The notes beneath the pieces were generated by a model, which had not been told where the DNA came from, ran no database searches, and saw only the letters and a program-made list of their open reading frames with translations. Positions 7,641 through 60,105 of a DNA stretch of 64,000 bases are shown in pieces (position 1 is the first letter of the stretch; the number at the start of each line of letters is the position of its first letter). Made by a program: the position numbers and the translations under genes. The DNA comes from Dictyophora rubrovolvata (Eukaryota > Basidiomycota > Agaricomycetes > Phallales > Phallaceae): contig CP114118.1 of NCBI GenBank assembly GCA_029959195.1, positions 2,356,001 through 2,420,000 of the forward strand, written 5' to 3'.

Positions 7641-7669
7641 ACTAAGCACCAGTATCACACTTTATACGC

Positions 7670-13295: not shown

Positions 13296-13639
13296 GTTAT
13301 CCCTCCAATATTTTGTTATACTCATGATAGTACTCATGATCTGGATATCGAGACTACTTTGTTCACTTATTATTCCCCAACTCCTATCCTCCAAATTGAT
13401 CCCACGACTCTTTATCATGTATTTCATGATTTCCCCCCTTACATATCTACCCAAAAACAAGTATTTCCTTTATTCTTTTTTTAGTTCCTGCCTGCTTTAA
13501 TAACCTTTTATTTGTAACGTACCTTATCTTTCAGGAACAGTCAGATGACTTAGTTCCAGAGACTTTTTTATTTTCTTATCATCTCTCTCCACTTCCCTGT
13601 CTCGCTATAATTTTCCCTGATCCACTATTAGTCATTCGC
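13296..13639. other. Repeat debris, no gene seen
   Basis: Positions 13,300-13,420 resemble the coding part of the 2.3-kb repeat (ATACTCATGATAGT...GATCTGGATATCGAGACTACTTTG). The remainder to 13,639 has no recognisable content. Confidence 0.5.
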
Positions 13640-26712: not shown

Positions 26713-28396
26713 ATGACGATGGAATCTCGGTATGCGTTGAGACACTTTGAGTGGACTAGACGAAGGCAAGTCACATCGTCACGGGGGCTACAAGAATTTA
26801 GCGCGCGGCCTACCGCGCTGCCGCGACAGTGTACCGCGCGAGTCCCACCCGCCGCCCGCTGCAAAATGTGCCCTCCTAGTGGCTGCATTGATTATAGGAG
26901 GAACATGTGCTGGCCCCGAAGTGACAGAATCGGGCTGAATATGCTTATCTTGAAATATTGAATCTACAAAAGTATTTGAGTTACTTGAAGTTATCATATA
27001 AAGGAAAACATATACGAGGATAATCAGGATGTATAAAATAGCCGAATGGTTTGCCTGGTATATATAAATATCATAAGCTACCGAGTATTTTACTTAGAAG
27101 ATGATGACCTCTTTGATTATATCCAGGTAACATTCTTGGAGGATATGAATCTGCCTGATATATTCCAGCAACTAGAAAGCAACAAGTCAGTCAGAATATT
27201 GAGTTGGTGTAAACTCAACTAACTCTTTTCTTTGGGTTTTCCAGTAGAAGAGAAACGATTGGCTAGAAATGCAGCCTGCTGATATAGATATGTGAACCAA
27301 TCCTGTATTTACAATTTAATTGTTAGACTTATATAGCTTATATCAGAAAAGTAAACACCCGAACCATTAAAATATTAATAAATATATCAAATTGATAATG
27401 AGCAGTTGTCCAATAGCGAAGCAAGTGCTTTGAACAATGCTTATCTAATGGCGCGGTAAAGATTCCTTACATGGCAACTCGCGCGTTAAGAATTCCTTAT
27501 GTGGCCACTCGCGCGGTGAAGATTCCTTACACAGCAATCGTACCGCGCCTTTAGCGCGATAATTTCCATACAAGGAATTCTTACCGCGACTTCACCGCGA
27601 CATATCATATGCCACAACCTATGCCAAACTCTCATTTTATCTCTCTAAAGTATGTTATATAATATTCAGATCCTTCTACTCATTATATTCAACACTCTAC
27701 TGAGCCTTACAGCTTGAGTTTGTACCCTATAGGAGGTTTTTTTTGCAGGTCGCGGCAATGTCGCGGCAGCGCGGTAGGCTTGCGCGTCAAATTCTCATGG
27801 CCCTCGTCACGGTCACACCTTCTACAGCAGAAGTTCGGACGTACTAGTAAAGTTATGAACTTTATGATTGTACGTGCCTCTTCCTGCCAGATGAATTTAG
27901 AAACTTTCAAGAAACACAAGGACTTCAAGTCCGGATACATCAAGAAAAACTCGAATCTTCATCGCTTTCTTTTCACACTGCCCACGTCAAACACGAAACA
28001 TCACTACCGCAATTATCGTTCTGCTCTCATAGGTACTTTCGATCTTCCGATGGCATTCTTGACATGTCAACAATACTATTATGGCTCCGAAGTAATGTAG
28101 ACTGCATGAAACCAGAAGATCTTCAAGATCAAGTCAGAATCGTATACAAAGTTTGTGTTTCTCAAGAGCCGAGGAACACCAACGGTTCGGATATGCTTTA
28201 TATCACTGATCGACTACTAAGGTTTGTCTCGAGGATGTGACTGCTAGCTGGTGCCTTCAAAGATATGCGTGGTTATCGTTTAGACAGTTACCTGCTTCCT
28301 TTCTCAATAACGTCTCCTCTGCTGAAGGTCGTCCGTGTCTGATTGCGTCCAAGTTCACAAAGTGCCGGAGCCAATATCGCGAGAACCTTATCTAGC
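26713..28396 (+). CDS. Possible host gene interrupted by a MULE derivative
   Basis: I do not recognise this protein. An ATG at 26,713 opens a frame (MTMESRYALRHFEWTRRRQ...) that runs into the transposon at 26,785. If the element and one 9-bp duplication are skipped, the frame continues without a stop as SHLLQQKFGRT. It then passes a plausible 44-bp intron (GTAAAG...CCAG), a 320-bp exon with QETQGLQVRIHQEKLESSSL and MKPEDLQDQVRIVYKVCV, a plausible 62-bp intron (28,222-28,283) and a last exon ending QYRENLI at 28,396. The start lies 48 bp from the divergent pseudouridine synthase ATG. As it stands, the insertion would disrupt the first exon. The model rests only on open frame and splice signals; alternative exons exist. 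Confidence 0.3.
26785..27803. mobile_element. Internally deleted MULE-type transposon, 1,019 bp
   Basis: Its ends match the full element at 51,474-59,484: GGGCTACAAGAATTTAGCGCG on the left, and on the right the reverse complement of GGGCCATGAGAATTTGACGCG. It is flanked by a perfect 9-bp duplication, TCGTCACGG (26,776-26,784 and 27,804-27,812). The first about 100 bp equal the left end of the full element and the rest equals its right about 920 bp, so about 7 kb is missing. The remaining sequence differs from the full element at only a handful of positions. It has no complete gene and would need transposase supplied in trans. Confidence 0.93.
27451..27603 (+). repeat. Subterminal CG-rich direct repeats of the deleted MULE
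   Basis: Three tandem units follow the pattern (T)CGCGCGGT-AAGAxTCCTTAC, separated by GGCAACT-like spacers, followed by CGCGCC and CGCGAC motifs. The same block is at 59,131-59,285 in the full element. Such arrays near MULE ends are candidate transposase-binding sites. Confidence 0.6.
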
Positions 28397-34600: not shown

Positions 34601-35592
34601 AACCGTAGTAGGGTAGGAGTATTAGGTTTAACTGTGAAGTGTAGGCGGTTTCGGCCGAGGAAAGAAGTAGTGTCACATTGTCACGGTCACATCTTCAGGC
34701 GTTAACCCATAGGGAACTTTCAAGTTGAACAGTGCTTCAAGTTTAAGCATCAAGTATTGAAATACGCGGTATTCTGCATATTTGGGTATTATTGTGGAAC
34801 TACCGTAACTGGTTAGTTCTACCGCGGTCCAAGTTCTGATCTTGCCAGTGGGCACCCCGGTCCAGGCTGCGGGCACACCGGCACCACACAAGATTGAAAA
34901 CGCCTCTGAATCGCTTTTGACAGTTATATTATCTTGATATTAATTCAAAGTACGGGTTCATTGAAATCAGTTTCTTTATATATTAATAGACTCATAGTCA
35001 AAATTTGTTTTTACGAGGGACGCGCAAGTGCCGCGTCAGCTGACTCAGTGCGGTAGGCCTGCACAGCGAATTCTCATGGCCCCAGGTACCGGCAGGTAGC
35101 CAGCATGTTCGTTTGGAAAGTTGAAGTACTAGCGTGTTTAGGTTACACTATAACGTGATTATAGTAGTGGTCGTTGACTCCGCATTTTTTTTTTGTAAGC
35201 ACAGCATCATGATTGTGCCCTCATATCAAGTTGATGACATTGTTAAGAGAAGGTCTGATATGCGCTATTCACGTAACCGTTGACAAGGGGACAATTGATA
35301 CATGGGAAAAATTCGATCGCGACCCAATTATTTTTCAATATTCATTTCTACTTGAAGGGTAAATGTTTACGAAACACTCTTTACTGGCTTTGATACGCAT
35401 TAGCATTCCGGAATAAGCTTTCAGCTTCATTAATATTTTTCCAGGATGATCAGCTGGTGTTATTTGCTTTATGAAATTTATTTCAATTACTCTGTGAGGG
35501 TCCGATGGTTTCGGTCGGCGCAAAGAAGTATATATATGGCTGAAAACGCTTTCGTGGCGGTTCAGCGTCGAGACGGTCTAGGAATATTTGCC
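34601..35592. other. Intergenic with an unrecognised reading frame and a transposon end
   Basis: A minus-strand frame at 34,673-34,891 encodes a 72-residue peptide, including KYAEYRVFQYLMLKLEAL and LKVPYGLTPEDVTVTM. It looks like the C-terminus of a real protein, but I cannot name the family, and no upstream exon was found. A transposon end lies at about 34,990-35,082. The rest is probably the promoter of the next gene. Confidence 0.4.
34990..35082. mobile_element. Isolated right end related to the MULE terminal repeat
   Basis: Read inward from 35,082 on the minus strand it begins GGGCCATGAGAATT, identical to the first 14 bases of the right end of the 8-kb element. It then shares GGCCTACCGC and a CG-rich run (GACGCGGCA, GCGCGTCCC). 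No matching left end or 9-bp duplication was found, so it is a fragment of a related but diverged element. Confidence 0.55.
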
Positions 35593-40012: not shown

Positions 40013-41992
40013 TTATTCCTTATCAGCCTTACCACTTGAAACCGAAGCACTGTCTTTTTCTATTAAACCCATCTTTGATACGTCGTAGCCATTCTGAGCA
40101 AGGTATTCGCGGAACTAGAGCAAACAGGCATTACATCGTGATGTTAACCTTAATCATCCAACTCACAGCTTTGTCCTCTTCAATCATTCCATCCACAGAT
40201 AGTGGATGAATGAACAATAGGGTATTAATTAAACTTAAGACTATGAGACCACTACCAATGAAGAACGGTCCTGAGTTGCCGCGGTCAGAAGAGGAGCCGC
40301 CAAATCCTAGGGAAAATAATGTCAGACAGCTTCATCGCCAAGTAAGAAGAATCCACCATACGATCAACAATGTGGGGAAAAGCTACGGAGAAATGTGTCA
40401 GCGAAAGTGATGTTTCAATCATCCGTATTTAGAGGTACATACCTAGCGTCCCAACGAGCGCACCAACTTTACCAACCGCAGCGGCGACTCCGAAATAATG
40501 CCCTCTGATGGCCGTCGGCCCAGTCTTTGCTGCAAGAATGATGGTACAGTTGCCAGGCTATGCGACAATTATTCAGATCTTTCAAAACATTCCACTCAAA
40601 GATACCAACAACGACCTACACCGAACTCTCCAAGACTCAAGAAGACGCCGTACATTATAGCAAATCCAGCAACATGATTCTTCAATAGTGGGTAGGTACC
40701 AGCAAGGATGAAACCGAAAACAGCTTGTGTAGCAAGACCCCAACAAAGAGTACGTTTGGGCCCTAGATAGTCTGCGGCGAAAGCACCGAGTATGGTTCCA
40801 GGCATATCGAAAATACTAAAAACTTGTCAGTTTTTTCTGTTCAAACGCGTGGAATGAACTAACTTGATAACGATATTCCATCCCAAGACCACTCCAAAAC
40901 TGACATCCGCGGGCTCTACACTGTCCAAGATGGGAGATGCGAAGAGACCGAACGGATATGCAATGAAGTCGTATAGAAACCTAGATATTTGTTAGTGCTT
41001 TACCAACAGTCAATAAATGATATTGAAACCATGTGAAAGATACGGCTGCTAGACTGCGCCAATACCGTGGGATGACCAAAGAATAAGGGATGGAGGTATA
41101 TCGCATGCCATCTTCTTTGTAACGTTTAGGTTCCTAATAGTCTTTGTATCAGCCATCTGCTTGCTTTTCTGAAGCAGTCTAACATACCGACATTCTTAGC
41201 CGCCAGATGAACACAATAGATGCGGGTAAAATGCCAAAGCCCAAGGTTCCTCTCCACACGGCATCAAGATGTTTGTCACCGAAACTACGTTATAGCAGAT
41301 TCAATACGGAATTCGGAGATAAACGACAGGATACTTTATTTACATCCACCACAGAACCAAAGGGACAAAGGCCCCAATCACAAAACCGAAGTCGATCATG
41401 GTGTCTGAAAGATTGAGATCTAAGATAGGCTGCAAGCGATGATGATGTTCACAACTCACTAGTAGCTAAAGCAAGCCAACGGTGTTGAGAATATTTTGCT
41501 ATTTGGTCCTCTTCACTTTGTTCGCTAGCTGCAACACTTCCGCATGGATATCCTGCTCCAATGCCAATACCGAGGAAGAATCGGAAGACGACAAGGGCAA
41601 CAAGTAAACTATGAGTTGAATTGTGGGCTCCTTGAGCACAAGCAGAAGCAGAGAGAAATGAGAATAAAATGATAATTCCTGTAGCCATCATCTAATAAAA
41701 ATATCAATACAATTTCAATTCCATAGTTTTTTTCCCGTAAAGAGACAACGCATACCATGCCGAATTTTCGTCCAAGCTTGTCAGTCAAGTATCCGAAAGT
41801 GATCATGCCAACAATTGTTCCAGCAAATCCTATCGAATTGAGAGTGGTATGTTCATTCTCGGTGACTACACTTGATCCAAACTTCCTTTGAAGAATTGTA
41901 ACGACTGTTCCAATGACACCGTTGACATAGCCATCCGAGAATAATGCAGTTCCGCAGGCAAAAATCAAAGACACCTGAGATAAGGGAACCAT
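40013..41992 (-). CDS. MFS permease, Git1-like (tandem copy A)
   Basis: A 12-helix permease resembling fungal glycerophosphoinositol/phosphate transporters. It starts [20 protein letters not shown] at 41,992 and continues [19 protein letters not shown], then [20 protein letters not shown], with LGRKFGM completing the loop 2-3 MFS signature (D-K-x-GRKFG). Helices 3-5 follow ([20 protein letters not shown]). Later exons include [20 protein letters not shown] and [20 protein letters not shown]. The cytoplasmic tail [20 protein letters not shown] ends at 40,013. Around nine introns are required. It is the leftmost of three same-strand paralogues and the substrate is inferred only from family resemblance. 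Confidence 0.82.
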
Positions 41993-42915
41993 AGTGAAGA
42001 GCTGGAGGTAGCGAAATCTCTATTGATAGGACCTACATTTATGGGAATCTGATTTGCAGATTTTTCCCAAGTTTAGGTTTACTATTACAATTGCCGTGAG
42101 ATGAATCGCGGTTGAACTATGTCGTATGTCCATGTCTCTGCTGACTTCACAAGTTCCCATGCCATTGAAAGACGGTTATTATTGGAATGCATTTGACATG
42201 TCCATAACTTCATCCTGCCCGCTTCGATTTTGGCTCGTCCTATGAACGGGAGAGCGGTGCGCACGTTGGTTAGAAGCAGACAGGCATGGGGTGGCGCGCT
42301 CGAACCTATGGTCAGGGATCGCCATTATCACTGGCATAAAATAGGGAAACATACGTACCATAGCCTCAAAGTCAATTCACGGCCAATGCAACGAGGTGTA
42401 GGCTGAATTCGGACTTTCTGGGGCTCATCGAGATCGCTCCGACGTTGTGCTGAGATTGAATTCCAAACTCTGACAAGTCCGCCAAGTGTTCTGATCGGGA
42501 CTGCATTTGCATGCGCATATTTTTTAACCGTGTTCATATGTATTTCGCTCTAATCTTTTAACGAACATAACAACAAAATACTAACGTCGATTTTTGTTGC
42601 GGTCAGACGGCGAATATCCCCGACAAAAAATGAACGTGGATGTGGAGCAAAGTATGACACCGAGCACTCCAACTGAGACCCTGCAAGTATTTTTTGATTG
42701 AAAAAGATATGTAGTATTTTTGCGTATGTCACAAAAATATTATCTGTTCCCAAGTTGCCTGGACGGGTGCTTGAAGCTTGACTGGCTGACTGTACTTGAG
42801 CTTGATTCGATCCGTCAGGCCTAAGGACTAGTATTGAATACTGAGTACTGAATCTGCGTCACTCGTTGCTCGAGCTCTAAGCACGTTTATTCCCAGAAAA
42901 AGTACCTATCCAAGT
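41993..42915. other. Intergenic, promoter side of permease A
   Basis: No gene is supported. Short frames at 42,179-42,753 lack any family motif. Confidence 0.5.
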
Positions 42916-44922
42916 CTAGACAATATCGATTTTCTCTCCAGATTCTCTGTCACTTGAAACAGACTCGCTTTCTTCCTCTGGCAGGCCCATTTTCGATACA
43001 TCGTAGCCATGTTGAATAAGGTATTCGCGAAACTAAAACAGTCAGTCGTTCCATCCGGATCACGGTATCTTGGAAATACCAACTCACAGCCTTGTCCACT
43101 TCAATCATCCCGTTTTCAGATAGTGGACGGACGAAGAATATAGCATTGATAAAGCTTAAGACTACAATGGCACTACCGATGAAAAATGGCCCCGAGTTGC
43201 CACGGTTAGAAGAGGGACCACCAAATGCTATCAAATTATGTCAGATAAGCTGAATAAATTATATCAAAATGCTCCAACCGTTGACAATGTGTGGAAATGC
43301 TGTCACAATGGCGACCGTCATCAGTTGAAGAACTCTTTCCCGAAAGCTCAGATCACGGACCTTGTGTCCCAATGAGTGCCCCGACTTTACCAATTGCGGC
43401 GGCAGTTCCATAATAATGTCCCCTGACGGCGGTCGGTCCAGTCTTTGCCGCAAAAATGACCGTACCAGTCCCTGCCTAGAAATTATTAGATCCCCAAGAA
43501 GAACTTGAACAGCGCCAGCATTCACAAAACTTACGCTAAACACTCCGAAACTCAAGAAAATGCCATACATAACGGCAAAGCCAGCAACGTGATTCTTCAG
43601 CATTGGGTAAGTCCCCGCAAGCACGAAACCAAAGACAGCTTGTATGCCAAGTCCCCAGCAGAGGGTACGTTTTGGGCCTATGTAGTCTGCGGCAAAAGCA
43701 CCTAATATAGTCCCAGGCAAGTTGAACAGACTTAAAAACCCATCAGCTTTTGTTTAAAGACTAGCATCTGCCGACTGACTTGATTACAACATTCCACCCC
43801 AAGACTGTCCCGAAACTGGCACCCTCCGGCGACACGCTATTCAAAATGGTGGAGCCAAACAAACCGAAAGGATATGAGATAAAATCGTATAAAAACCTGA
43901 GATATGTATATTAGCGCTCTTCAAACCCGTCGAGGGAAGTAATAAAACCATGTGAAGGATATGGCTGCTAGACTAGGCCAATATCGTCGAATGACCAAAC
44001 CATAAGGGATAGGAGCGTATCGCATGCCATCCTCCTTGTAACGTTTAGGTTCCTAGTAACACAGTCTATCAGGCATTTGCTTGCTTTTTGAAAACTGAGA
44101 TGAGATGATCCAACTTCATACCGTCATTCTTAGCCGCCACAAAAACACGATAAAAGCGGGCAAAATGCCAAAGCCCAAGCTTCCTCTCCAAACAGCATCA
44201 AGGTGTTTATCACCAAATCTTTTTTACGATAAATCTGACACATTTCGGTTGTATGTAAATGATAGGGTACGTGACTTACATCCACCACAGAACTAAGGGA
44301 ACAAAAGCTCCGATTACAAAACCGAAGTTGATCGTAGTGTCTAGAGATTTATAATAAGTGTAAATGTCAAATAGAAAATTGCGATACTTAATATTTACTG
44401 GTAGCCAGACAGTACCAACGGTTTTGGGAATGTTTTGCTATTTGACCTTCCTCACTTTGCTCACTCGCTGCGACACTTCCGCATGGATATTCTGCTCCAA
44501 TACCGATACCGAGGAAGAATCGAAAAACGATCAGGGCAATAAGCAAACCATGCGTCGAATTGTGGGCTCCTTGAGCGCATGCGGAGAGAAATGAAAATAA
44601 GATCATAATTCTGGTAGCCATCATCTGGTGACGTGAAATGAGCAATGCAGTACTTTCAGAATTTTTTGACAACCAGAGCACATACCATACCAAACTTTCG
44701 TCCAGACTTGTCAGTAACATATCCAAAAGCAAGCATCCCAACGATGGTTCCAGCAAATCCGATCGAATTAAGTGTGGTGTGTTCATTTGTAGTGACCACA
44801 CCTTGACCAAATTTCCTTTGAAGAATAGTAACGACCGTTCCAATAACACCATTGACATAACCATCTGAAACCAATGCAGTCCCGCAGGCAAAAATCAGAG
44901 ACACCTGATTTAATGGAATCAT
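42916..44922 (-). CDS. MFS permease, Git1-like (tandem copy B)
   Basis: This is a paralogue of copies A and C with the same exon order. It starts [20 protein letters not shown] at 44,922, then [27 protein letters not shown] and [20 protein letters not shown]. The middle exon near 43,259-43,720 gives [20 protein letters not shown]. The last membrane region is [20 protein letters not shown]. The tail, [20 protein letters not shown], ends SGEKIDIV at 42,916. It is closest to copy A by eye: the N-terminal exons of A and B share VTILQRKFG, where C has VNIIKRKFG. Substrate unknown, presumably similar to its neighbours. Confidence 0.82.
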
Positions 44923-45843
44923 ATCAAACAGAGGAACTTTAAAGAATAATTTGAATCTTAGTAAGTTTCCCTGGCAAGGTCTATTTTATTCCTACCATTA
45001 CAATCGCCCGGTTGAACTTCTTCAAAGAACGTCGAATCACTCAATCTGCTACCTTTCCGGTCTCGTGACTTCGAAAGCCAGGTATAATTAGGATTCAGAG
45101 TATTTCGGCTGGGGCGTGATGCATGATGTCGTAATGAATGCTTCGATTATGAATCGTCCTATGAAAGGTCAGAATGAGACGCACATTCGAATCTTGTTGA
45201 AGCCCACGCCACAAGAAAATGTGCAGTTTCCCATAGTGCTATGTATGCTCGCATGTCACATGTGATCTATCATTTTAAGCAAGACGTCTACTCACGGTAA
45301 GAATATGAGCGTATCTAACATGTATTTTTGCTCGAAATTGGATGTTGTTACTTACATTACCATATGGTGATTACAGCGCTTTTCAAAAGCTAAGGCGGGT
45401 CGGCTAAGAAATTTCCCACCTGAGAACAAGGATTTCTCAAGCACTATGTAAGATAATTGCCTACTTTTTATTGCAATGGAATTGTATAACCTTTATCTAG
45501 CACTTGCCCATATTTTTTGGGAGTTAATTGTGTTGAGTGTCTTAAAAAATCCAATATTTCAAAAACAGTCACCCGCCTTAGCTTTCAAAAAGCGCTGTAA
45601 CCATAAACGATTGACATGCGCATATATACACGACGTTCCATTACTGATATATCTTTAAACGTTACAATCGCCCTTGGCAGCTTCGAATTCCTATGACGTC
45701 GGAAGCGATTTTATTCAAGTTTAGTCTGGATACAAAATTCATTACGCTAGTTTCATCAAAGTCATGAATAATCACCGAATATGATCTACAAAATTATGAT
45801 CATGTCCCAAAGGAGATGATGACCCCCGAAATTTACCACCATT
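44923..45843. other. Intergenic between permeases B and C, contains a MITE
   Basis: Apart from the short inverted-repeat element at 45,365-45,603 I see no gene. The first 100-200 bp are the probable promoter of copy B. Confidence 0.5.
45365..45603. mobile_element. MITE with about 35-bp inverted ends and TA duplication
   Basis: The left end, TGGTGATTACAGCGCTTTTC, and the reverse complement of the right end, TGGTTACAGCGCTTTTTGAA, both continue with AAGCTAAGGCGGGT. The 239-bp unit is flanked by TA on both sides (45,363-45,364 and 45,604-45,605), as Tc1/mariner-type elements are. It has no coding capacity, so it is a non-autonomous element mobilised, if at all, by a transposase elsewhere. Confidence 0.75.
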
Positions 45844-47842
45844 TTAAGAATGAACTACTTCTTTCTCTTTTTCATTTCTATCACTCTCAATAGATTCCAC
45901 ATCGTATTCTTTCAATCCCATTTGAGATACGTCATAACCATGGCTAGTAAGGTAGGCTCGGAACTGCGATACAAAGCTGCTTAGTAAGGTAACAAAACAT
46001 AATTAGGAAGGACTCACATCTTCATCTTCAGCACGCATGCCGTCGACCGTCAAAGGATTGATGAAGAAGTAAGTAATCGCCAAACTGACAACCGCCAAAC
46101 CACTGCCGATGAAGAAGGGTCCGGAGTTACCACGATTAGAATCCGATCCTCCAAAGCCTGCGATAGTCATTATATAACCACGTAAAATGCACATTACAAG
46201 AATATTGGCTGCTTACGATCTATAATATGTGGGAAAGCTAGTTACATAAGATGACGTTGGAATTGAGTTTCTGAACAGGGCACAACAGGGTGTTTGGAGC
46301 ATACCTTGAGTTCCGACGAACGCTCCAATTTTGCCAACCGCAGCCGCAATTCCGTAAAATTGACCTCTGACAGCTGTGGGACCAGATTTGGCAGCAAGGA
46401 GACCAAGACAGTTTCCAGGCTAGTGGATTTAATTTCAACAGCTTGTTGAGGAAAAAAATAATAAATGCATTTACCCCGAATTCTCCGAAAGACAAAAAGA
46501 CGCCATATAAAACCGCAAACCCGGCCACGTGTGATTTGATAAGGGGGTAAACTCCAGCCAAGATGAACCCTATGACAATTTGTGCGGCCAATCCGATACA
46601 CATGGTTTGCTTAGCCCCCAAGTAGTCCACAACCATAGCTCCAATCAGGGTTCCCGGCATATAGAAAATGCTGGGTCGAAGAGTGAATTAATGAGACAAT
46701 AAGACAGCTCAATAACACCTACTTAATAACTACATTCCATCCCAAGATGACACCAAAACTTGTGCCAGTTGGTTCAACGCTGGAAAGGATGGGCGTTGAA
46801 AAAAGGCCGAATGGGTACGTAATGAAATCATAGATAAACCTGAAATATTATCCATTAATTTTCTACAGGCACAACAAGGCAAAACTGATTCAAACCAGGT
46901 AAGGCAGATAGCAAGAAGTCTTTTGTAATAACGTCGGACAATTAACCAATAAGGTATTTTGGCGTATTTCATCGAGTCTTTCTTATAACGCGTGGGCTCC
47001 TACGCGAAATGAGAAATTTGTAGGCAAACGAGAGAAGAAATGCTCGACTTACGTCCATTCGGAGACGCCAGAAAAATACGAAGGTGGCCGGGATAACACC
47101 AAGACCTAAAGTTCCTCTCCATACGGCATCAAGATGCTTATCCGTAAAGCTAATGAAATGAAATATTCATTGTCCAGTCTGGAAATGAAGAAGGAACGGG
47201 CCACATACATCCACCAAAGAACCAAGGGCACGAAAGCTCCAATAACGAAACCGAAATCAATCATGCTATCTAGCGCGAGTGCTCAGACAGAACGATTCAA
47301 GTTTAGCGGAAGGTCGACCTACTTGTGGCCAAAGCGAACCAACGGTTTTGAGCATTTTTAGCTATACCTTCTTCTTCGCTTTGCTCACTGGCAGCAACAC
47401 TACCGCAAGGATATTCTGCACCAATTCCTATACCGAGGAAGAACCGGAAAACGATGAGTGCCGCCACTAAACCTTGTGTTGATCCATGGACTCCTTGAGA
47501 ACAAGCTGACAAGAACGAAAACAAGACGATAATTCCGGTTGCCGACATCTATACTATTTCGTTAATCCTTTCATCGATGCGCATGCAGAATGTAAGATGA
47601 CTGACCATTCCAAATTTACGTCCAAACTTATCACTGATATAACCAAATGTAAGCATACCAACAACAGTTCCTGCAAATCCAATCGAATTGATAGTTGTGT
47701 CTTGGTTTGTCGTAATCACATCAGCACCGAATTTGCGCTTAATGATATTGACGACTGTCCCAATAATGCTGTTGACATAACCATCAGAGAATAGGGCGGT
47801 CCCACAGGCAAAGATGAGGGACACTTGTGAAAGAGGTGCCAT
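45844..47842 (-). CDS. MFS permease, Git1-like (tandem copy C)
   Basis: The third paralogue. I choose the ATG at 47,842 ([20 protein letters not shown]), because copies A and B start at the equivalent place; an in-frame ATG 21 bp upstream is possible. Then follow [47 protein letters not shown] and [20 protein letters not shown]. The exon at 46,238-46,660 gives [20 protein letters not shown], and [20 protein letters not shown] is the last membrane segment. The tail ends [13 protein letters not shown] at 45,844. It is the most diverged of the three copies, suggesting it split first. Confidence 0.82.
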
Positions 47843-48557
47843 AGTGGAGGAGATGAATGACACTGAGAAGGGTTAATTGGACGTACCATCACAACTATAT
47901 ATACGAAACACCAAAAATTTGCTCGGAGATAGATAAGTTCCTAAGCTTTTTTTTCGACGCACGTGCGATTTCAGCCGTGATTGCTATTTTCGTATATGAA
48001 GCCAAATGATACCAGTCTCGACCGTGTCAAGAAGTTACGGTCTTCGGAACTTAGGGCATTCACATTAAAGAGTTCTGCAGCTTCTAGATTGTTTAAAGGC
48101 CACTCAAAACATGGTTTTCACAGAAAGAGCAAAGACGATGAGCTGCGGTTTAGATGGCTTTTCACATGAATTGATTACCTGTCGGTGGACAGGCACACGC
48201 GAACATTTACAAAGGGTGACGGATTAGTGCCGCACCTAAACTTGATTGGGTGGGGAGTCGAAAGAAGCCATCAGTTGATGCTCCTAAGGCGAATAATCAC
48301 ATGAATGTGAATAGGTGGAGGTCTCCGGCCTATGGATCTTAACTGAGACAGGGTCGCTTTTGGGGGCGGTACCAATTGAATAACACAATACAAATATTGG
48401 AGTATTTTACTGAAAATAATTACTTCTGCAATATGTTAAATGCTATATCACTTATACCTTTTTTACGAGTATACTATCACCAAAGTCGACCAACTCCACC
48501 TTTAAGTGACTCACAATGAAAATGACATGATCACTAGAGGAGGGAATGTAAGCATAT
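47843..48557. other. Intergenic, no gene seen
   Basis: It includes the probable promoter of permease C and the 3' flank of CWC15. A 62-codon plus-strand frame (47,981-48,169) has no recognisable motif. Confidence 0.5.
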
Positions 48558-51205: not shown

Positions 51206-51473
51206 GGTATTTTAGATTATAAGGTAAGGCTTCAACTTCAAGCTTCAAGAGTCAAGAATAGATGATGGCCTATGATGGCATAGACCACACTGCCGTGACG
51301 GTGGCGCGCGTTACTTTCAAAATGAAACTCGACAGGTGGACCAAACAAGCGAGCATGACTGTATTATCCATGTAAAACGGAATTTGGAGTGGGATTTTAC
51401 CCGCCTTCCATGAAATTCGATTGATGCACGACCGTTTCTTCACTGGCAGCAGGATGCAAGGTTGACGTTGTTG

Positions 51474-51520
51474 GGGCTACAAGAATTTAGCGCGCGGCCT
51501 ACCGCGCTGCCGCGACAGTG
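51474..51520 (+). repeat. Left terminal inverted repeat of the MULE
   Basis: It starts GGGCTACAAGAATTTAGCGC and includes CCTACCGCGCTGCCGCGACA. It is unusually CpG-dense in an otherwise AT-rich element and matches the left end of the deleted copy at 26,785. Confidence 0.9.
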
Positions 51521-51813
51521 TACCGCGCGAGCCCCACCCGCCACCCGCTGCAAAATGTGCCCTCCTGGTGGCCAGCGGGTCTAAAACGCGAGCAAAAATA
51601 ATGTATATTATTTTCAACTTGGCTGTTAAACTACAATATATCATTGAAAAGTACCCTAAATACGTTCCGGGCCCCATAGAGTTGTTCTGACACTGCACCC
51701 TGCCCCCTGCCCACCCCCTGCCCCAGCAACACCCTGTCCATAATCCAGTGAACTGGACCCTTCCTGTTGTCCCACCTGAACCCAGAGCACAACAACAAGA
51801 GGTAGAACAGGCG

Positions 51814-53580
51814 ATGCGAAGGGTTGGGAATAGAGTAGGTGCAGCAAGTGCAGGGCTGCCACGAACAATGCTTACACAAACTTTCAAACTCAGCAATACC
51901 ACAGCCTCCACTGCGAGCATGCCCTCTAAAAACCAGAACAAACAGGAGGAATGTAAGATGATGTATGATTACCTGAACTTGGATATTAATGTTTCTTTAG
52001 TTTTGAAAAAGATCACTTCACAAACCTCCCTTATTACTGATATGCAGGCTGGGGAAATTGGTCCTGATACACTGGCTGCTATCCAAGCTATAAATGAAAG
52101 TTTGAGGCATAAATATACAATCAACTCGGTTGGTTTGAGTATAAATTCCTTTATTTCCTCTTATCTATTGTCAGGTTGAGCAGTTACTCCCTTTACTTCC
52201 CAACATGCCCGATCCAGGGCATGTCGCTATCTTCAGAGAATACCAGAAGCTACATCGCCACCAGCATGCACAGAAGCAATGGGATAAGAAACAATTCGTG
52301 AGCTTTTCAATTATTATCTTGATTTATCATGTATATGCGATATTTTTATAGGTGAAATCTTTGAATTTGCAGTCGCCTGCTCCTCTGGCAGCACAGATGA
52401 ATATCCCAGTGCATCGTCGTAACCGTGACAAGATACCATGTGTAAAATCAAGGGTGGTAATATTTGACAGGGGGAATCAGCAATTCGTGTCCCCAAGAGA
52501 TTGGGGGAGTATGCAAGCTGTCGGTACTGGGGTATCTTGGAAGAGGGTAAAGTCTGACGAGAGTATTATAATCCAAAACTCACCCGGTAAATTCTACCAA
52601 TTCAGACCATTCATAGTACTATATTTTTTCTCAGGTGATATTGAGCTCGTTGTCATCCGAAATATTTCTGGCAACCCCTTGCTTCTGCAGTCTATGAATG
52701 CGATTATAGAAACTGCTACCAAATATCGCCGGGATGTTCGGGTGGGTAATTCTTTTTAATATAATCACATTTTTAGTAATTCCAGGTAGCCCAACCATCC
52801 TGGGACAATGGTCCAGTTAGGCTATAATGCAGGGCCTCGCCACTGTCGTATTTTTGGTCTCGTTAATAATTTCAAATCTGCGAAACTGGCTTTAGAGGTT
52901 AAGGGCCAGCAGGATGAACAGGCTATTGGAGTTCTCTCATTTTTTTGGCACTTAATACGATCACATGCCCCACAGGAAATTGTTCGTGCTGTAGAAACAG
53001 CAATAGAAAGTTCGGGTATGCCCGAAATCAATTCGCGATTTGGTAGAGGTATGTGGCATTTTATAATCTTAAATTAGATATTTATATTGAATAGATCTCC
53101 CTGGTTATTCAATCGCTGTTGGGAGCCAGGAATTCAATTTTCCTACAGTGCATAAAGGCCCTTGCGAAGGGTATTTTGCTACTAACTATGCAGCGTGTGT
53201 AATTCCTTCTATTTTCTTTAATCGTGTCTGATTATAATCGGAATAGTCCCACTCACTCCGATCCTTGCTTCGCAGAGTATGCATTTGCATGGTCAACGAA
53301 GCATGTTGCACTGCATCCCTTGCGATCCAGCCAATGTGCTGGGGGTAATTTTGCCGATATTACCTTGCGAGTACTTGTGGAATCAGCTGCTGATACCCTT
53401 CTCATTTTCAAACCGAAGTATCGGCATGGAACGACTATAGCGAGGCCAACTATATCAAGGGCTGGAATGGTGATTGCTTTTTCTATTCATATCAAAAAAG
53501 CTTATGATATAGCGATGGCGAATGCTTCAAAAGGAAAATCTGCTAAGCTGGTTTCTAAAAGAATATCTAGGAAAAAATAG
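51814..53580 (+). CDS. Transposon-borne 2OG-Fe(II) dioxygenase-like protein (possibly TET/JBP type)
   Basis: Seven exons (51,814-52,128; 52,175-52,297; 52,352-52,586; 52,635-52,741; 52,790-53,048; 53,095-53,194; 53,247-53,580) join in frame to about 490 residues. The first ATG in frame is used; an upstream exon is possible. The C-terminal part looks like a double-stranded beta-helix oxygenase. An H-S-D iron motif (PTHSDPCFAEYAFAW, His codon at 53,254) is followed by CAGGNFADITLRVLVESA, then a distal histidine in FKPKYRHGTT (53,425) and an arginine in SRAGMVIAFSI. Upstream are PRDWGSMQAVGTGVSWKRV and LGYNAGPRHCRIFGLVNN. The end is basic (KLVSKRISRKK). Fungal TET/JBP genes are known to travel with transposons, so a role on modified bases is possible, but a protein or RNA substrate cannot be excluded. 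Confidence 0.65.
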
Positions 53581-53611
53581 ATTGTTTTTCATAGTATAAT
53601 CCATAAACTAT

Positions 53612-56600
53612 TTAATGGTGTAACTTTCTTTTTTTAGCTTTAGATATGTTACTATCGGCCATGGCTTGTTTTCGTTTTGAAACTATTCTAGGCTTCGGTT
53701 TTGGCCTGGTTAAGGCCATAACAGATATAGCCCCAGCTTCATCTCTATCACTGCCTTCACTAAATTTCAGTCCAGTCTAAAAAATAAAATCAGTGATATA
53801 TTCTTGTTCAAGGCTTTAATAGTTACTTGATAGACATCATCCTCAGGCTCGTCATAATCATGCAGATTCCAATCTTCAGGTACATTGGGATAAGGGCTCC
53901 ATTTCTCTTGGTGTACTCCAGAATCTAGCCCCCATTGTTGATAGCTGGCAAGACCACCTGCCTTTGATGTCTCAAACATCCGTCGTTCTAAAAGAAATAT
54001 AGCTTCGCGATCGACATCTACTCCTTTTGATGGCAGTCTTGACTCAGTTTGTAATGCCCAGGCTTGTTCAAGTAATTTTGCATGCTCATTGCTACCAACA
54101 GCAGCTGAACTGTTGAATTTACGAGCCAGGATAATAAGAGTGATAGCATGTGCAACTGGAGCTTTTTGAAGCCATTGATTGCGATTCGAAGTTGCTGGAT
54201 GTAAATACCGGTAAATAAAAGCATTTACACTGGCACATTCATCTGGCGAGAGATCTCCTGTAAAGGGGACCATGTTATTTTTTTTCCATGACATTTCAAT
54301 GTTCTTGGAAAAAATAATTGTTGGGCTTCGTAAATAGGATAAAGCAGGACAGGAACTTGAGGAAACTGCTTTAGGTGAAACCAGAATAGTATGGAGAGTT
54401 TTTTTATGGGGTAGAAGAATATTTATAATCTCCTGATTTACTTGAGTATTTTCATAATCAAGTATGGTATCTTCGTCGCCTTTTAATGTGCAGGCCATTG
54501 TCCATTTTCCTAACTAAAAATCACTATTAAAACGGATAATCATATAATATTAAATCCTTACTCGTATAAGTCGTCGGGTTTTATGATCATTCCAAAGAGA
54601 GTCTACGATATCTTGAGAAGCTACACTAGATGTAGCTGGAGACTCAGGTCCATATTGATTTAATCGCCACCACTTAATTCGCCATTGTTTTGATTGTTCA
54701 TCAAGGGTAATCAATCGAGCTGGATAATAATATTTCTTGTGTCGAACCAATACACCTTTACCAGCCCTACCAGAATGTGAATAAAAATATGAATTCTGGT
54801 AATAGACTTACAGTAATCGTTCCGAAAGAGGCTGTTTAGATAATTCAATAAAAGCCTGTTTTTCTTTTCTGTGTGATTTCGGCCTAAGGATATCTACAAA
54901 TTTTGAAATATCACAATCATGACATGTAAATCGGGCCTTTGCAGCCAGCTTGCTAGCTCGTCCATCGTATTGGCAGGCAATATGGGACCACTGGCTACAT
55001 GTCCCACATTGAATACACTTTTCATCTTCAATATCTGGAGAATCACCATCGCCCTGAAATCCACATCGGCAATTAATAGGAAATTCCGAACGATTAGATA
55101 TATTGGCTAAGCTGTCCAGGGAATTTCCAGATAAAAGATTGCCTTTATTGGGAGAGCTAGGCGAGGCTATTTCTGTTTCTATATCACTCTCGACAGTTTG
55201 AAATTTCTGATGAAATTTACTGGGCCTAATATTCGTTATAGGCGAGCTGGTATGGCTAGCCTCTGCTGAAGGGTTTATCTCCGATTGAATGATTTTGTTG
55301 AATCGTATTTTTTTAGGAGTTGATATAGGAAGTACTTGCTGCCAGAGGTAATCAATGACAGTTTTGTCATAGGGATCAGTCATCCAGGTTCGCTCGCTAG
55401 CAGTGAGAATAGAACAGGGTGGGTTCTCGGGAATAAATTTCATCCAGCTATCTTGTGTAGGGTCTGGAATAAGGTGGTGGTGTTGTCGAACCCATTCGAT
55501 CCTAATTTTACGATAAATTTCTTGAGTAGTAGCAGGTTGTTCTAAAACATAAACTACTGCATTGATGTTACTCATAGTATAATCTTGCCCATGAGTTGCT
55601 AGTGAGCCTTTAGTTATACGAATTGATTTTCCTGAGTTCTTGAGGCCATCGTACTCGTATATATGCTGATTATAAAGAAAACTTGCAGTATAATGGGCCG
55701 ATGACTGTGCGAAGTGCCCTTTTCCCATCAAGTGATACTTGATATCTCGATATTCTGAAGTCCCTTGAAGTATTTTCGGAATATTCCATTCCGGATTGCC
55801 TTCAGTACCATCAAATTCCATAATTAGAATTGTTGGAAGTGTGAGCCACACTGTTGTGAGTGTGGCCGAGCCCATACATAAAGATTGATCTCCAGATCTC
55901 TTCCAACAGCCAATATGTTTCTCTATTACAGGCGAACTGATAGTGTGCTGGAACCATTTTTGTAAACTTCCTTGAAAAGCTTGGTGTGTATCAAGCTTAA
56001 TATTGCGAGTGTTTATTCGCCTAACTTGATCGTTAATCCGTGAGTGATGAGAATTTCCTGAAGTACAGGTACGAATATCGATGACACAGGATTCGAAAAG
56101 CGTTATAATGTTATATTTTGAACGATACTCTCGGATGGCCCCATCAAGCCATCCGAACAGTGATTCTGGAGCAGAAGACCCAACCAGCAGCTTTTTAGAC
56201 TGTAAGAATTCCCGAAATTGGTCTCGTTTAAGTGATAAAAGGCTTGCATGGTCAATGTTCTCGTCTCTCTCTAAGGAATTCCGTTCACCTAGAGTATAAT
56301 ATAAGGTACCGATTGTAGTGGCTGTATCGGCTATATCTAGAGCATCTTGAAATTCTTTATAGATGGGAAGAATAGCTCGATATAATAACTCTAATGCTGT
56401 ATCTAGCCAACAAGAGTTATTTCGCCAAGAATATCCTTGAAGAGAATGGGTAATATTGGCAGTTTTTCCAGCCATTAAATCTTTAGCAGTATCTGGCGGG
56501 CGACCATCGTTATGAATTGATTTTTTACGACCTCGATAGAGCTTTGTTCGGCCAAGCTCTTTGGCAGTGGCCTTCCATCGTTCAGGTTGGCCATAAAGTG

Positions 56601-58984
56601 TTGGTATACCGATACTAGATGCAGTACTTTGATGCATAAGCCAGTCAGCATAGTGATAAAGCCCTTCCAATCCTTCAATTAACCCCACCCCTTTCGCAGT
56701 AGCCCGATATAAGCTGAAATGTAAAGATTCTTCAGCATTAGTAGTTGCTGGAAGCTGTGCCCAGGTTTGATCGTCCATAACACGAAAAGCCTTGAATAAC
56801 TTTTCTGCAGGTCCCTTCTGTCGCCACCATTGTAACCAAGGTTGTATACCTGGGAATTCACGAACCAGGAGTGAAGCTCTCTGGTTAAATTCAGCTATAT
56901 TGCAGGCATCTAATAAAGCTAGGGCTCTTTTCTCGAAAGCACTCGCTAAGGTAGGCTTGATAATCCCACTGATCTTCTTCAAGCGAGTAATTCCTGTACG
57001 AAAATGCTGCTCGCATCCTTTAATTAATGCATTGGCTGCTATTTGAAGCTCCTCGATTGAGCGACTATTTCCAGGAAGATGCTGCCAAAATTGTATGAAT
57101 GCTGCGACAAAGCCATTGGACTGGGCAACACTAAAATCCATGACTGTTGCAAGCATTTCATCCGACATGTGAAGATCTCGGTGAGTACATTCATCGTACA
57201 GGGCTTGAAAGAGGGTGTAAAAATGCAATTGATAATGGCCAGCAGTTCCACCATTTGCATATGAAAAGAGTGTGGGGATCCATCGGTGCAAGAGTTGTGA
57301 ATAAACCGAAGTAATGATTAATTGGACATCCGATGCTTTCCAATAATTATGTGCTGCATCAGTAACAAAGCCATTGACTGGCTCAGAAAGTCGAGTTTCT
57401 TGGACTAGATGCCATGCCATCCACGAAGTTTGGCATGATAAGACTGTAACCGAACCGATATGTGATGCCTTCAGGAATTTAGGATATTTTTGATCGAATT
57501 CGGATATTCCATCTAGGCTTGCATCACGAACAAGAGGCTGTACGACTTTTTGCTTTTCATATCGAATACGATCCACATTAAAAAAAATTGAAGAAATATC
57601 GGTGGCCTTTTGATTATCGGTACCGACTCCAACAGCAAGTTTGAGTGCACTAGTTTTAGGATAGATATGAATGAGCTGTTCAAATTTATCCCTCTCCTTT
57701 CGTTGCAAATGTAAAATATATGCTGGTCGAGGGTGTGTATGATGGCCACCATTTTGATATAAATAGCCATCTTTGAATCGATAATATTTCGATTCCACAG
57801 GACAGGTGATATGATGCAGACTCCACCCACAGCGACATAATTCCTGTAACTGTTTGGACAGGCCATGTTTGGTAGTTTGGGGGCGAACAAGCATTTCGCA
57901 GTTGGAATTATTACATTTTATAACCCCTTGACAAAACCGACGAGTAACCTTGCCCTTCATAGGGTCAGTAGCCTCTACATCGCCAGATTTGTCACCGCCC
58001 CCAGTTTTCATAGCCCAGTGCACAGTGAATTTATTCAATTCTTCAAATTCAGTTGGGGTATAAATTTGACTCCAATCGCCATCAGGCCAGCCATCCCAAG
58101 ATATGTTCTTTATAAGTAATGAATTTCTATTTTTTATCATTAATTTCAAATACCCACCGAGTTAGATGTTGTCTGAGAAATAGCCTTGTCTATACTCGCA
58201 TTCAGTGAGCCTGCTTTATTTGCAGTCAAGTCCAATGGTAATTTAGACTGGGAATTAACTACTTGAGTAGTTGTAGTTGGAATTTGATTTAGAGGGGGCT
58301 GTCCCGACTTGACATTGGAAGTATAAACCTGATTCACTGGGGTAACTGTGGCTTGCACAGCAGAAGTTATATTTGAAGCAGGGGGCTGAAAGGTGGGGCC
58401 TGAAGTGGGAGGGTGTGGTATTGGATTCGTATTCGTAGTTGAAGATAATGGTGATAAAGTTGAGGGAATGAAATTAGGATTAGGATTGGGATTTATTATT
58501 ACTGAAGGTAAATGCGAGGGAGTATTGAGATTTATTAATAAATGACTGGAGGTATTTTCAGAAGTTGCATTGATTATAGGAGGAACATGTGCTGGCCCCG
58601 AAGTGACAGAATCAGGCTGAATATGCTTATCTTGAAATATTGAATCTACAAAAGTATTTGAGTTACTTGAAGTTATATAAAGGAAAACATATACGAGGAT
58701 AATCAGGATGTATAAAATAGCCGAATGGTTCGCCTGGTATATATAAATATCATAAGCTACCGAGTATTTTACTTAGAAGATGATGACCTCTTTGATTATA
58801 TCCAGGTAACATTCTTGGAGGATATGAATCTGCCTGATATATTCCAGCAACTAGAAAGCAACAAGTCAGTCAGAATATTGAGTTGGTGTAAACTCAACTA
58901 ACTCTTTTCTTTGGGTTTTCCAGTAGAAGAGAAACGATTGGCTAGAAATGCAGCCGACTGCTGATATAGATATGTGAACCAATC
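53612..58984 (-). CDS. Giant MULE transposase with USP-like protease and PHD finger
   Basis: The core exon (54,808-58,149) is open for 1,113 codons; numbering follows it. A Cys/His cluster at about 70-150 (CNNSNCEMLV...ELCRCGW...GGHHTHPRP) resembles a GCM1/WRKY zinc finger. The DDE core has D264 (GFVTDAAHNYW), D338 (VMDFSVAQSNGF), C379-x2-H382 (GCEQHF) and E473/E474 (TTNAEESLHF). A ubiquitin-protease-like domain follows, with C580 (WRNNSCWLDTALELL), H819 (SAHYTASFLYN) and D834 (YEYDG). A PHD finger (C4HC3) spans about 1,025-1,082. Downstream exons add a tudor/PWWP-like segment (YYYPARLITLDEQSKQWRIK), a 240-residue region and a basic tail, KAKKRKLHH. Upstream exons (to 58,984) add a Ser/Thr/Pro-rich N-terminus; the true start is undetermined. 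Confidence 0.85.
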
Positions 58985-59130
58985 CTGTATTTACAAATTA
59001 ATTATTAGACTTATATAGCTTATATCAGAAAAGTAAACACCCGAACCATTAAAATATTAATAAATATATCAAATTGATAATGAGCAGTTGTCCAATAGCG
59101 AAGCAAGTGCTTTGAACAATGCTTATCTAA

Positions 59131-59285
59131 TGGCGCGGTAAAGATTCCTTACATGGCAACTCGCGCGTTAAGAATTCCTTATGTGGCCACTCGCGCGGTG
59201 AAGATTCCTTACACAGCAATCGTACCGCGCCTTTAGCGCGATAATTCCCATACAAGGAATTCTTACCGCGACTTCACCGCGACAT
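59131..59285 (+). repeat. Subterminal CG-rich direct repeats of the full MULE
   Basis: Three tandem units contain (G)CGCG-GT-AAGA-TCCTTA with short spacers, followed by CGCGCC, AGCGCG and CCGCGAC motifs. The block is conserved almost exactly in the deleted copy (27,451-27,603), which fits a role as a cis-acting element such as a transposase-binding array. Confidence 0.6.
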
Positions 59286-59424
59286 ATCATATGCCACAAC
59301 CTATGCCAAACTCTCATTTTATCTCTCTAAAGTATGTTATATAATATTCAGATCCTTCTACTCATTATATTCAACACTCTACTGAGCCTTACAGCTTGAG
59401 TTTGTACCCTATAGGAGGTTTTTT

Positions 59425-59484
59425 TGCAGGTCGCGGCAATGTCGCGGCAGCGCGGTAGGCTTGCGCGTCAAATTCTCATGGCCC
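59425..59484 (-). repeat. Right terminal inverted repeat of the MULE
   Basis: Read from 59,484 inward it is GGGCCATGAGAATTTGACGC, then CCTACCGCGCTGCCGCGACA and a second CCGCGACC. The last base abuts the 9-bp duplication ACGTTGTTG. Confidence 0.9.
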
Positions 59485-59568
59485 ACGTTGTTGTGACCTG
59501 CTCGGTCACGGGCTCACGTTTTTCTTGCGTTTTTCCTCCCTTTTTTTTTGTTTTCGTGGTATTTTGAA

Positions 59569-60105
59569 ATGTGGTAGGTGATTTTTCTTGGTATATATGG
59601 ATTACACAGTCTAATATCATGTAAGCAAGCATATTCTGAATGCTCAAGTAACTATCAGAGCTCCATGTTGTAAGCAGTGGTATGATTGCGCTGAATGCCA
59701 TGCGGAGAAACAAACGCATGCCCTGGCGAAAACGACGGAGATGACGTTCATGTGCAAGAAATGTCGTAAAGCGTTTAGGAAAGACATGTCGACCTATGAA
59801 GAAAGCGATGAATATTGTCCACATTGCGATAATCACTACGTATGTTGTCTAATTCGTATATACTCAGAGTCGGGCTCTCATCTATTGCGGTAATCATTAG
59901 GTCATCGATGCGAAAACTCCTCAGGCTGTCATCGGCATTGAAGCAGAGGATACTCGTATTGACTCTCGGTAATCTTTATTCCCTGTCATTCTTTGGAGAT
60001 ACCTAAAATGATGATGTTACCTTCAGGATTATTAAGGACGACCGAACCCAGCAACATTCCGTGCAATCAATTTATGACATGGACTTCTCGGATAAAATCG
60101 GCTGA
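59569..60105 (+). CDS. CHY-type zinc-finger protein, 121 aa
   Basis: A small zinc-binding protein of the CHY family (zf-CHY; relatives include yeast Hot13, which acts in the mitochondrial intermembrane space). Four exons fit. A 5-nt first exon (ATGTG, 59,569-59,573) joins 59,626-59,839, then 59,901-59,968 and 60,027-60,105, reading MCKHILNAQVTIRAPCCKQW, YDCAECHAEKQTH, MTFMCKKCRKAFRKDM, DEYCPHCDNHYVIDAKTPQ and a C-terminus DMDFSDKIG. All Cys/His pairs of the family are present (CKH, CC, CAECH, CKKC, CPHC). The micro-exon depends on the donor GTAGGT and acceptor TAAG. The MULE duplication ends 75 bp upstream of the ATG, so the 5' untranslated region or promoter now abuts the transposon. Confidence 0.88.

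What the first reader, a model, noticed from the sequence alone, without database searches (positions are those of the whole stretch)
51474..59484. A whole MULE-type transposon that carries a protease-reader-transposase fusion and a dioxygenase
Seen: 8,011 bp with inverted ends starting GGG, a perfect 9-bp duplication (ACGTTGTTG), two convergent spliced genes with long open exons, and no break noticed. Known: 9-bp duplications and a DDE core with C-x2-H are Mutator-superfamily traits; fungal TET/JBP genes have been linked with other transposons (KDZ type). Inference: this element packages its own tools for chromatin or protein modification (ubiquitin-protease-like, PHD, dioxygenase), an arrangement I do not know from described MULEs.
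Basis: partly seen in the sequence, partly recalled or inferred. Interest (0 to 1): 0.92.

Follow-up and report, generated by a model that had tools for sequence, protein, structure and literature searches.

The report
MULE transposon carrying a dioxygenase-like gene
An intact 8-kb jumping gene, probably in a fungus, encodes a Mutator-type transposase with chromatin-reader and protease-like parts and beside it what looks like a TET-like dioxygenase, so it may carry its own tools for escaping host silencing; the enzyme identities rest on sequence motifs and are not proven.

Summary
The element (51474-59484) has about 54-bp imperfect inverted ends, a 9-bp duplication and two intact convergent spliced genes. 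A second, internally deleted copy at 26785-27803 has the same ends and its own 9-bp duplication, so the boundaries are real and the family inserted at least twice. Gene A (about 1639 aa) is a GCM-finger transposase whose D-D-E spacing (74/135), C-x2-H and W fit MULEs, followed by USP-like peptidase motifs, a PHD finger and a possible Tudor domain. Gene B (455 aa) has HxD...H...R spacing like CcTet, but searches gave only chance-level matches and structure prediction failed: its dioxygenase identity is motif-level only. Kojima 2025 lists 11 TET/JBP-carrying DNA-transposon lineages, none a MULE; the MULE table of Dupeyron 2019 lists no dioxygenase. Best reading: a MULE carrying a TET/JBP-like anti-silencing gene, possibly a twelfth such lineage. 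Co-occurrence of both genes in other full copies could not be tested: no host genome was held.

The parts
51465..51473 (.). target-site duplication, left copy (ACGTTGTTG)
51474..51527 (+). left terminal inverted repeat
   Evidence: 81.8% identity over 55 columns to the right end
51919..53580 (+). gene B, 455 aa, 7 exons (introns 52129-52174, 52298-52351, 52587-52634, 52742-52789, 53049-53094, 53195-53246); 2OG-Fe(II) dioxygenase-like, TET/JBP-like by motif
   Evidence: H348, D350, H405, R416
53247..53580 (+). last exon of gene B, holds HxD, GG, distal H and R
   Evidence: exon folded alone gave an unusable model
53612..58812 (-). gene A, about 1639 aa; exons 58812-58773, 58733-58695, 58645-58158, 58107-54812, 54766-54562, 54513-53827, 53776-53612 (first two exons tentative)
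57721..58098 (-). GCM-type zinc finger (PF03615)
   Evidence: 25 bits, E 1.9e-5 on the piece, equal to the curated cut-off as printed; 20.7 bits, E 4.3e-4 on the whole open frame, under the cut-off of 25
56731..57360 (-). MULE-like DDE core: D439, D513, C554, H557, W638, E648
   Evidence: spacing compared with PMC13359780 and Muta1 in PMC5225508
55537..56505 (-). USP-like cysteine peptidase region: C755, H994, D1009
   Evidence: Cys box 68, His box 1, both 0 of 50000 shuffles
54913..55071 (-). PHD finger, C4HC3
54562..54766 (-). possible Tudor-like domain
   Evidence: PF18115 E 0.028, below cut-off
59133..59219 (.). three 30-bp-spaced subterminal repeats, possible transposase binding sites (inference)
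59432..59484 (+). right terminal inverted repeat
59485..59493 (.). target-site duplication, right copy
26785..27803 (+). second insertion of the same family, 1019 bp, internal deletion: left 99 bp (97.0%) joined to right 919 bp (98.7%); own 9-bp duplication TCGTCACGG at 26776-26784 and 27804-27812
35046..35082 (+). diverged right terminus of a related element (83.8% of 37 nt; last 14 nt identical); no left partner found

Best explanation
A complete, recently active Mutator-like DNA transposon of a (probably basidiomycete) fungus. Shown: ends, 9-bp duplications of two insertions, two genes open under their splice models. Strongly inferred: gene A is the cut-and-paste transposase, with a GCM finger to bind the ends and a DDE core to cut and join. 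Inferred from motifs: its C-terminal half carries a USP-like isopeptidase and a PHD (perhaps Tudor) histone reader, and gene B is a 2-oxoglutarate Fe(II) dioxygenase most like TET/JBP.
For: Boundaries. Coding integrity. MULE: D-D 74 and D-E 135 against 60-76 for eleven and 120-135 for eight of twelve arthropod MULE families and 69/136 in Muta1; C-x2-H and W between D2 and E, as Muta1's paper describes for most MULEs; 9-bp duplications; GCM E 1.9e-5. PHD. Peptidase boxes. Dioxygenase: H-x-D, then H 57 after the first H, then R 11 later, against H326/D328/H376/R385 in CcTet, that is 50 and 9. Context: fungal DNA transposons of 11 lineages carry TET/JBP genes. Ends are CpG-dense: observed/expected 1.5 in the left 54 bp and 1.31 in the right 350 bp, against 0.82 for the window.
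Against: No Pfam match for the DDE, peptidase or dioxygenase regions at E up to 10 (its filters drop most matches above about 0.1) and none in NCBIfam. PDB sequence searches gave nothing for the peptidase and only chance-level names for B (best E 0.27, an unrelated protein); PHROGs gave nothing for B and two weak unnamed families for the peptidase (E 0.063 and 0.14). Both structure predictions, made from single sequences, failed (mean pLDDT 37.4 and 32.5). The dioxygenase pattern appears in 97 of 20000 shuffles of B. Alignment of B with a recalled basidiomycete 2OG fragment was not significant (132 of 2000 shuffles as good for all of B, 21 of 2000 for its C-terminal part; 4 of 354 window ORFs scored higher). 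C-x2-H lies 41 residues after D2, against 11-19 in prokaryotic relatives; W is 10 before E, against 18 in Muta1. Only one full copy is in hand.
Confidence: 0.6

Rival explanations
1. A MULE with an ordinary multi-domain transposase; gene B is an accessory protein of another fold or a captured host gene, and its HxD...H...R pattern is chance.
For: No profile match and only chance-level PDB sequence matches for B; motif in 97 of 20000 shuffles; some MULE groups have a second ORF, unknown or antisense.
Against: The motif residues fall in order, in one exon, with spacing close to CcTet, and fungal DNA transposons repeatedly carry such genes.
Confidence: 0.25
2. Gene B is a 2OG-Fe(II) dioxygenase but not a DNA demethylase: it hydroxylates a protein (histone, silencing factor) or another base.
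For: It lacks both residues that Kojima gives for AG type (Gly or Ser at H+5, Asp at H+11; counted without gaps on the translation, B has F353 and A359) and the HxE mark of PE type. Kojima also leaves other activities open for PU and PE types.
Against: Known transposon-borne relatives in fungi are called TET/JBP; the CpG-rich ends would suit a DNA target.
Confidence: 0.15
3. The transposase belongs to a non-MULE superfamily (for example a KDZ-type relative), and the 9-bp duplications and spacing are coincidental.
For: No MULE profile match; KDZ transposons are the first-reported TET/JBP carriers.
Against: Duplication lengths given in Kojima's text for the TET/JBP lineages are 8, 7, 6, 3 or 2, not 9 (Helitrons make none, general knowledge; Figure 1 not seen); two insertions both give 9; D-D-E spacing fits MULEs.
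Confidence: 0.07

Closest known systems
TET/JBP-carrying fungal DNA transposons (Kojima 2025, PMC12730594; parts 1-5 of 7 and the figure legends read; part 5 ends in the references; figures and supplements not seen)
   Same: DNA transposon with its own transposase plus a separate dioxygenase-like gene with the 2OG metal motif; proposed anti-silencing role
   Different: The 11 lineages listed include no MULE; none is reported in the text with 9-bp duplications, and 'protease', 'PHD' and 'MULE' do not occur in it. Gene B shows neither the AG nor the PE hallmark residues; PU was not comparable here.
MULE groups of Dupeyron et al. 2019 (PMC6446971; passages, and section 6 with the whole Table 1, read)
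   Same: Inverted ends, 9-bp duplications, zinc finger plus DDE transposase, sometimes an antisense second ORF; chromatin or peptidase cargo occurs (SET in 14 Phytophthora members, OTU in one cnidarian element)
   Different: Table 1 lists no group with a GCM finger, a USP-like peptidase or a dioxygenase, and 'gcm', 'peptidase' and 'dioxygenase' do not occur in the text
Rehavkus elements (passages and table of PMC6446971)
   Different: Listed from arthropods and annelids only, with a minisatellite; no dioxygenase or peptidase listed
GCM/WRKY-finger MULE transposases (Babu et al. 2006; title seen in a reference list, content recalled)
   Same: WRKY-GCM1-type DNA-binding finger fused to a MULE transposase
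   Different: Not held here; whether fungal members carry the C-terminal domains could not be checked
Plant VANDAL anti-silencing and ULP-carrying MULEs
   Same: MULEs that encode anti-silencing (VANDAL, as told in Kojima's introduction) or a Ulp1-type protease (Kaonashi, recalled)
   Different: Different proteins: no TET-like dioxygenase, no USP-like domain (recalled)

Membership tests
MULE (Mutator superfamily) | 8-10 bp target-site duplication | tested here: met
   9 bp at both insertions
MULE (Mutator superfamily) | terminal inverted repeats | tested here: met
   about 54 bp, 81.8%; score 57 vs at most 26 in 100 shuffles
MULE (Mutator superfamily) | D-D-E triad with family spacing | tested here: met
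   74 and 135 within ranges; residues picked by eye
MULE (Mutator superfamily) | C-x2-H and W between second D and E | tested here: inconclusive
   present, but C is 41 after D2 and W 10 before E
MULE (Mutator superfamily) | match to a MULE domain profile | tested here: not met
   no Pfam match of the DDE region at E up to 10
[quoted passage not shown]
   GCM, E 1.9e-5 on the piece; under the cut-off on the whole protein
TET/JBP dioxygenase | HxD ... H ... R metal and 2OG residues | tested here: met
   H348, D350, H405, R416; 97 of 20000 shuffles show a like pattern
TET/JBP dioxygenase | double-stranded beta-helix fold | tested here: inconclusive
   single-exon, single-sequence model at pLDDT 37 is unusable
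TET/JBP dioxygenase | match to Tet_JBP or another 2OG profile | tested here: not met
   none at E up to 10; a home-made 2OG profile did not detect its control fragment either
TET/JBP, AG type | Gly/Ser at H+5 and Asp at H+11 | tested here: not met
   F353 and A359, counted without gaps on the translation; criteria
TET/JBP, PE type | HxE instead of HxD | tested here: not met
   HSD; criterion
TET/JBP, PU type | PU-conserved residues of Kojima's Figure 7 | not testable with these tools
   figures and supplements not held
USP (C19/C98) cysteine peptidase | Cys box, His box and acidic residue in order | tested here: met
   C755, H994, D1009; both boxes in 0 of 50000 shuffles; box patterns recalled, loosened and fitted post hoc
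USP (C19/C98) cysteine peptidase | profile match | tested here: not met
PHD finger | C4HC3 and profile similarity | tested here: met
   pattern; PF00628 E 7.5e-4 on the piece (19.9 bits, cut-off 24); best PDB match Bye1, E 0.0032

The most novel reading that the evidence does not exclude
The first MULE, and a twelfth DNA-transposon lineage, that carries a TET/JBP-like DNA dioxygenase, of a type outside AG and PE, joined with a transposase that itself holds a histone reader and a ubiquitin-type isopeptidase: a self-contained anti-silencing package aimed at its own CpG-rich ends.
Probability: 0.42. Interest if true: 0.75.

Novelty: new variant of a known kind. Interest (0 to 1): 0.6.

Why it matters
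If gene B is a DNA dioxygenase, TET/JBP genes have entered yet another transposon superfamily, one known for taking up host gene pieces, which supports the view that escaping cytosine methylation is a recurrent winning strategy for fungal DNA transposons. The fused peptidase and reader would add histone-level counter-silencing to the same element. The intact copy and its 1-kb deletion derivative give a natural helper and donor pair with which this can be tested in yeast.

Tried and rejected
Host genome search: none held. Relatives: viral contigs with exon A (no pattern match) and gene B (4 stretches matched a pattern, none a relative), a degenerate C-W-L-D pattern (0 matches), genome contigs with gene B (17 stretches matched, none a relative). 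Structure prediction of the last exon of B and the large exon of A: unusable, so no fold search was run. Tet_JBP in one bacterial genome (0 of 1) and in 398 genomes of its phylum (0 of 398); the 14 control genomes were silent too, so uninformative. A profile from 30 bacterial 2OG proteins (the 30 loci given; 61 of 120 genomes had PF13640) scored B no better than shuffles (374 of the 394 shuffles reported, of 500 made, scored as high or higher) and did not detect the 2OG control fragment either, so uninformative. Pairwise test of B against that fragment: not significant. My first peptidase pattern did not match gene A; I rewrote it nearer to the recalled PROSITE boxes before the shuffle test, so that test is post hoc. 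A window pattern was ill-made and means nothing. The promoter scan is for bacterial signals and was not used. Rejected: KDZ membership (duplication length) and AG or PE type (hallmark residues absent).

Literature limits: 10 searches. Among the rows listed (at most 20 a search, of up to tens of thousands of hits; titles and starts of abstracts) I saw no MULE with a TET/JBP or other dioxygenase. Only open-licence papers are held; Iyer 2014 and Babu 2006 could not be read.

Full report
The element. The ends at 51474 and 59484 align as inverted repeats of about 54 bp (81.8% over 55 columns; score 57 against at most 26 in 100 shuffles), start GGG, and are bordered by a perfect 9-bp ACGTTGTTG. No host genome is held, but the 64-kb window contains a second insertion: 26785-27803 joins the left 99 bp (97.0%) to the right 919 bp (98.7%) of the same element and has its own perfect 9-bp duplication, TCGTCACGG. 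This proves the boundaries and shows at least two insertions. The derivative encodes neither whole protein. It may have been moved by proteins made elsewhere, or have lost its middle after landing, and I cannot tell which. A diverged third right end lies at 35046-35082 (83.8% of 37 nt; last 14 nt identical).

The genes. Gene B (+, 51919-53580, seven exons) encodes 455 aa; gene A (-, 58812 or so to 53612) encodes about 1639 aa; they converge with 31 bp between their stops. The introns of the models are GT-AG; the ten outside the tentative start of A are 45-54 nt with 25.5% GC. The 1098-codon exon of A has no stop in frame and 43 and 80 in the other frames; shuffled B was open in 0 of 2000 trials. 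The start of A is tentative. Coding sequence fills about 78% of the element under this model. That the host is a fungus, probably a basidiomycete, is my inference from intron size and the company of such genes; no call shows it.

Gene A. A GCM-type finger is supported: 25 bits, E 1.9e-5 on the piece, equal to the curated cut-off as printed, though only 20.7 bits on the whole open frame, under the cut-off. The DDE core matches no profile, but D439, D513 and E648 are 74 and 135 apart; arthropod MULE families are reported at 60-76 (eleven of twelve) and 120-135 (eight of twelve) (PMC13359780, passages and section 12 read), and Muta1, where mutation of each residue abolished transposition, at 69 and 136 (PMC5225508, passages). 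C554-x2-H557 and W638 lie between, though at distances (41 after D2; 10 before E) that differ from prokaryotic relatives (11-19; PMC3942029, passages) and from Muta1 (18). I picked these residues by eye. Downstream, a Cys box (GYSWRNNSCWLD) and a His box (YHLMGKGHFAQSSAHY) resemble ubiquitin-specific proteases; loosened recalled patterns occur in 68 and 1 of 50000 shuffles of the region and both in none. An earlier pattern of mine had not matched, so this test is post hoc, and no peptidase profile or PDB sequence matched; PHROGs gave two weak unnamed families (E 0.063 and 0.14). A C4HC3 PHD finger follows, with a weak Pfam score (19.9 bits, cut-off 24). Of the 14 distinct PDB sequences listed at E up to 10 for the exon, 12 are PHD-finger proteins matched over this stretch (one is so named in the output, the others I know as such), the best being Bye1 at E 0.0032; the other two are not. 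A Tudor match is only a hint (E 0.028). The last 280 or so residues match nothing.

Gene B. H348-x-D350, GG, H405 and R416 lie in order in the last exon. CcTet, a fungal TET, uses H326, D328, H376 and R385 (PMC11040006, passages), so the spacings are 57 and 11 against 50 and 9. A pattern of this kind occurs in 97 of 20000 shuffles of B. Pfam, NCBIfam and PHROGs gave no match, and PDB sequences only chance-level ones (E 0.27 and above). Alignment with a recalled basidiomycete 2OG fragment, itself weakly recognised by the Pfam 2OG-FeII_Oxy_3 and Tet_JBP profiles (E 1.1e-4 and 0.0032, both under their cut-offs), was not significant although it put GG, H and R in register (132 of 2000 shuffles as good; 4 of 354 window ORFs scored higher). 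Structure prediction from a single exon was unusable. Such weakness has a precedent: Kojima reports HHpred E-values of 1.4 and 19 for one transposon-borne type. I put dioxygenase at about 0.75 and TET/JBP at about 0.6; these are judgements.

How it probably works. Transposition itself would be standard MULE cut-and-paste by protein A. The rest is inference: PHD and Tudor bring the transposase to marked chromatin, the peptidase removes a ubiquitin-type mark, and B oxidises methylcytosine. One observation favours a DNA target: CpG observed/expected is 1.5 in the left 54 bp and 1.31 in the right 350 bp, while the whole element has 0.71 and the window 0.82. The 350-bp windows that overlap the four ends of the two copies are four of the five richest in CpG (24-28 CpG, mean of all 12.7), but more than half of each left-end window is flank; the right 350 bp taken alone hold 24 and 23.

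Comparison. Kojima 2025 (PMC12730594; parts 1-5 of 7 read, part 5 ending in the references, plus the figure legends) lists 11 DNA-transposon lineages with TET/JBP genes in rusts, mushrooms and morels/truffles; none is a MULE and none is given 9-bp duplications in the text. B lacks the AG marks (Gly/Ser at H+5, Asp at H+11) and the PE mark (HxE); PU could not be compared. Dupeyron 2019 (PMC6446971; passages, and section 6 with the whole Table 1) lists MULE accessories including SET, OTU, FAR1 and PMD, and PHD in Rehavkus, but no GCM, USP-like domain or dioxygenase. So each piece has a precedent near by, and I saw the combination in none of the papers read or rows listed in ten searches of an open-licence library. 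Iyer 2014 and Babu 2006, the two most relevant older papers, could not be read, and Repbase was not available.

Verdict. A real, open-framed, recently mobile element; MULE at about 0.9; cargo idea plausible and testable, not proven.

Noticed in passing
2804-5102 and 10835-13135: A 2.3-kb inverted repeat pair, 99.5% identical, amid further related repeats (for example 7664-9784 with 13634-15790, 85.6%; 39-563 with 15923-16447, 91.4%): a nested repeat-rich tract; four of its ORFs were tested and match no Pfam family at E 0.01.
   Followed up: partly
40033-41993, 42951-44923, 47056-47849: Three diverged copies (about 68-73% DNA identity) in a row; two ORFs in the second copy weakly match sugar/major facilitator transporter profiles, below the cut-offs.
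   Followed up: partly
59615-59893: A CHY zinc-finger ORF (PF05495, E 1.2e-9; read stop to stop) begins about 120 bp beyond the right duplication: the element seems to have landed next to a host gene.
   Followed up: partly
29303-29875: Methyltransferase-like ORF (PF13649, E 1.7e-8), 1.5 kb from the deleted copy of the element.
   Followed up: no
59133-59270: Three 30-bp-spaced subterminal repeats and a nearby inverted copy at the right end; the repeat search showed no such array at the left end, and the deletion derivative keeps just 99 bp there.
   Followed up: partly
19376-19999: ORF that looks by eye like the RNase H end of a Ty1/copia retrotransposon (recalled; no Pfam match at E 0.01).
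   Followed up: no
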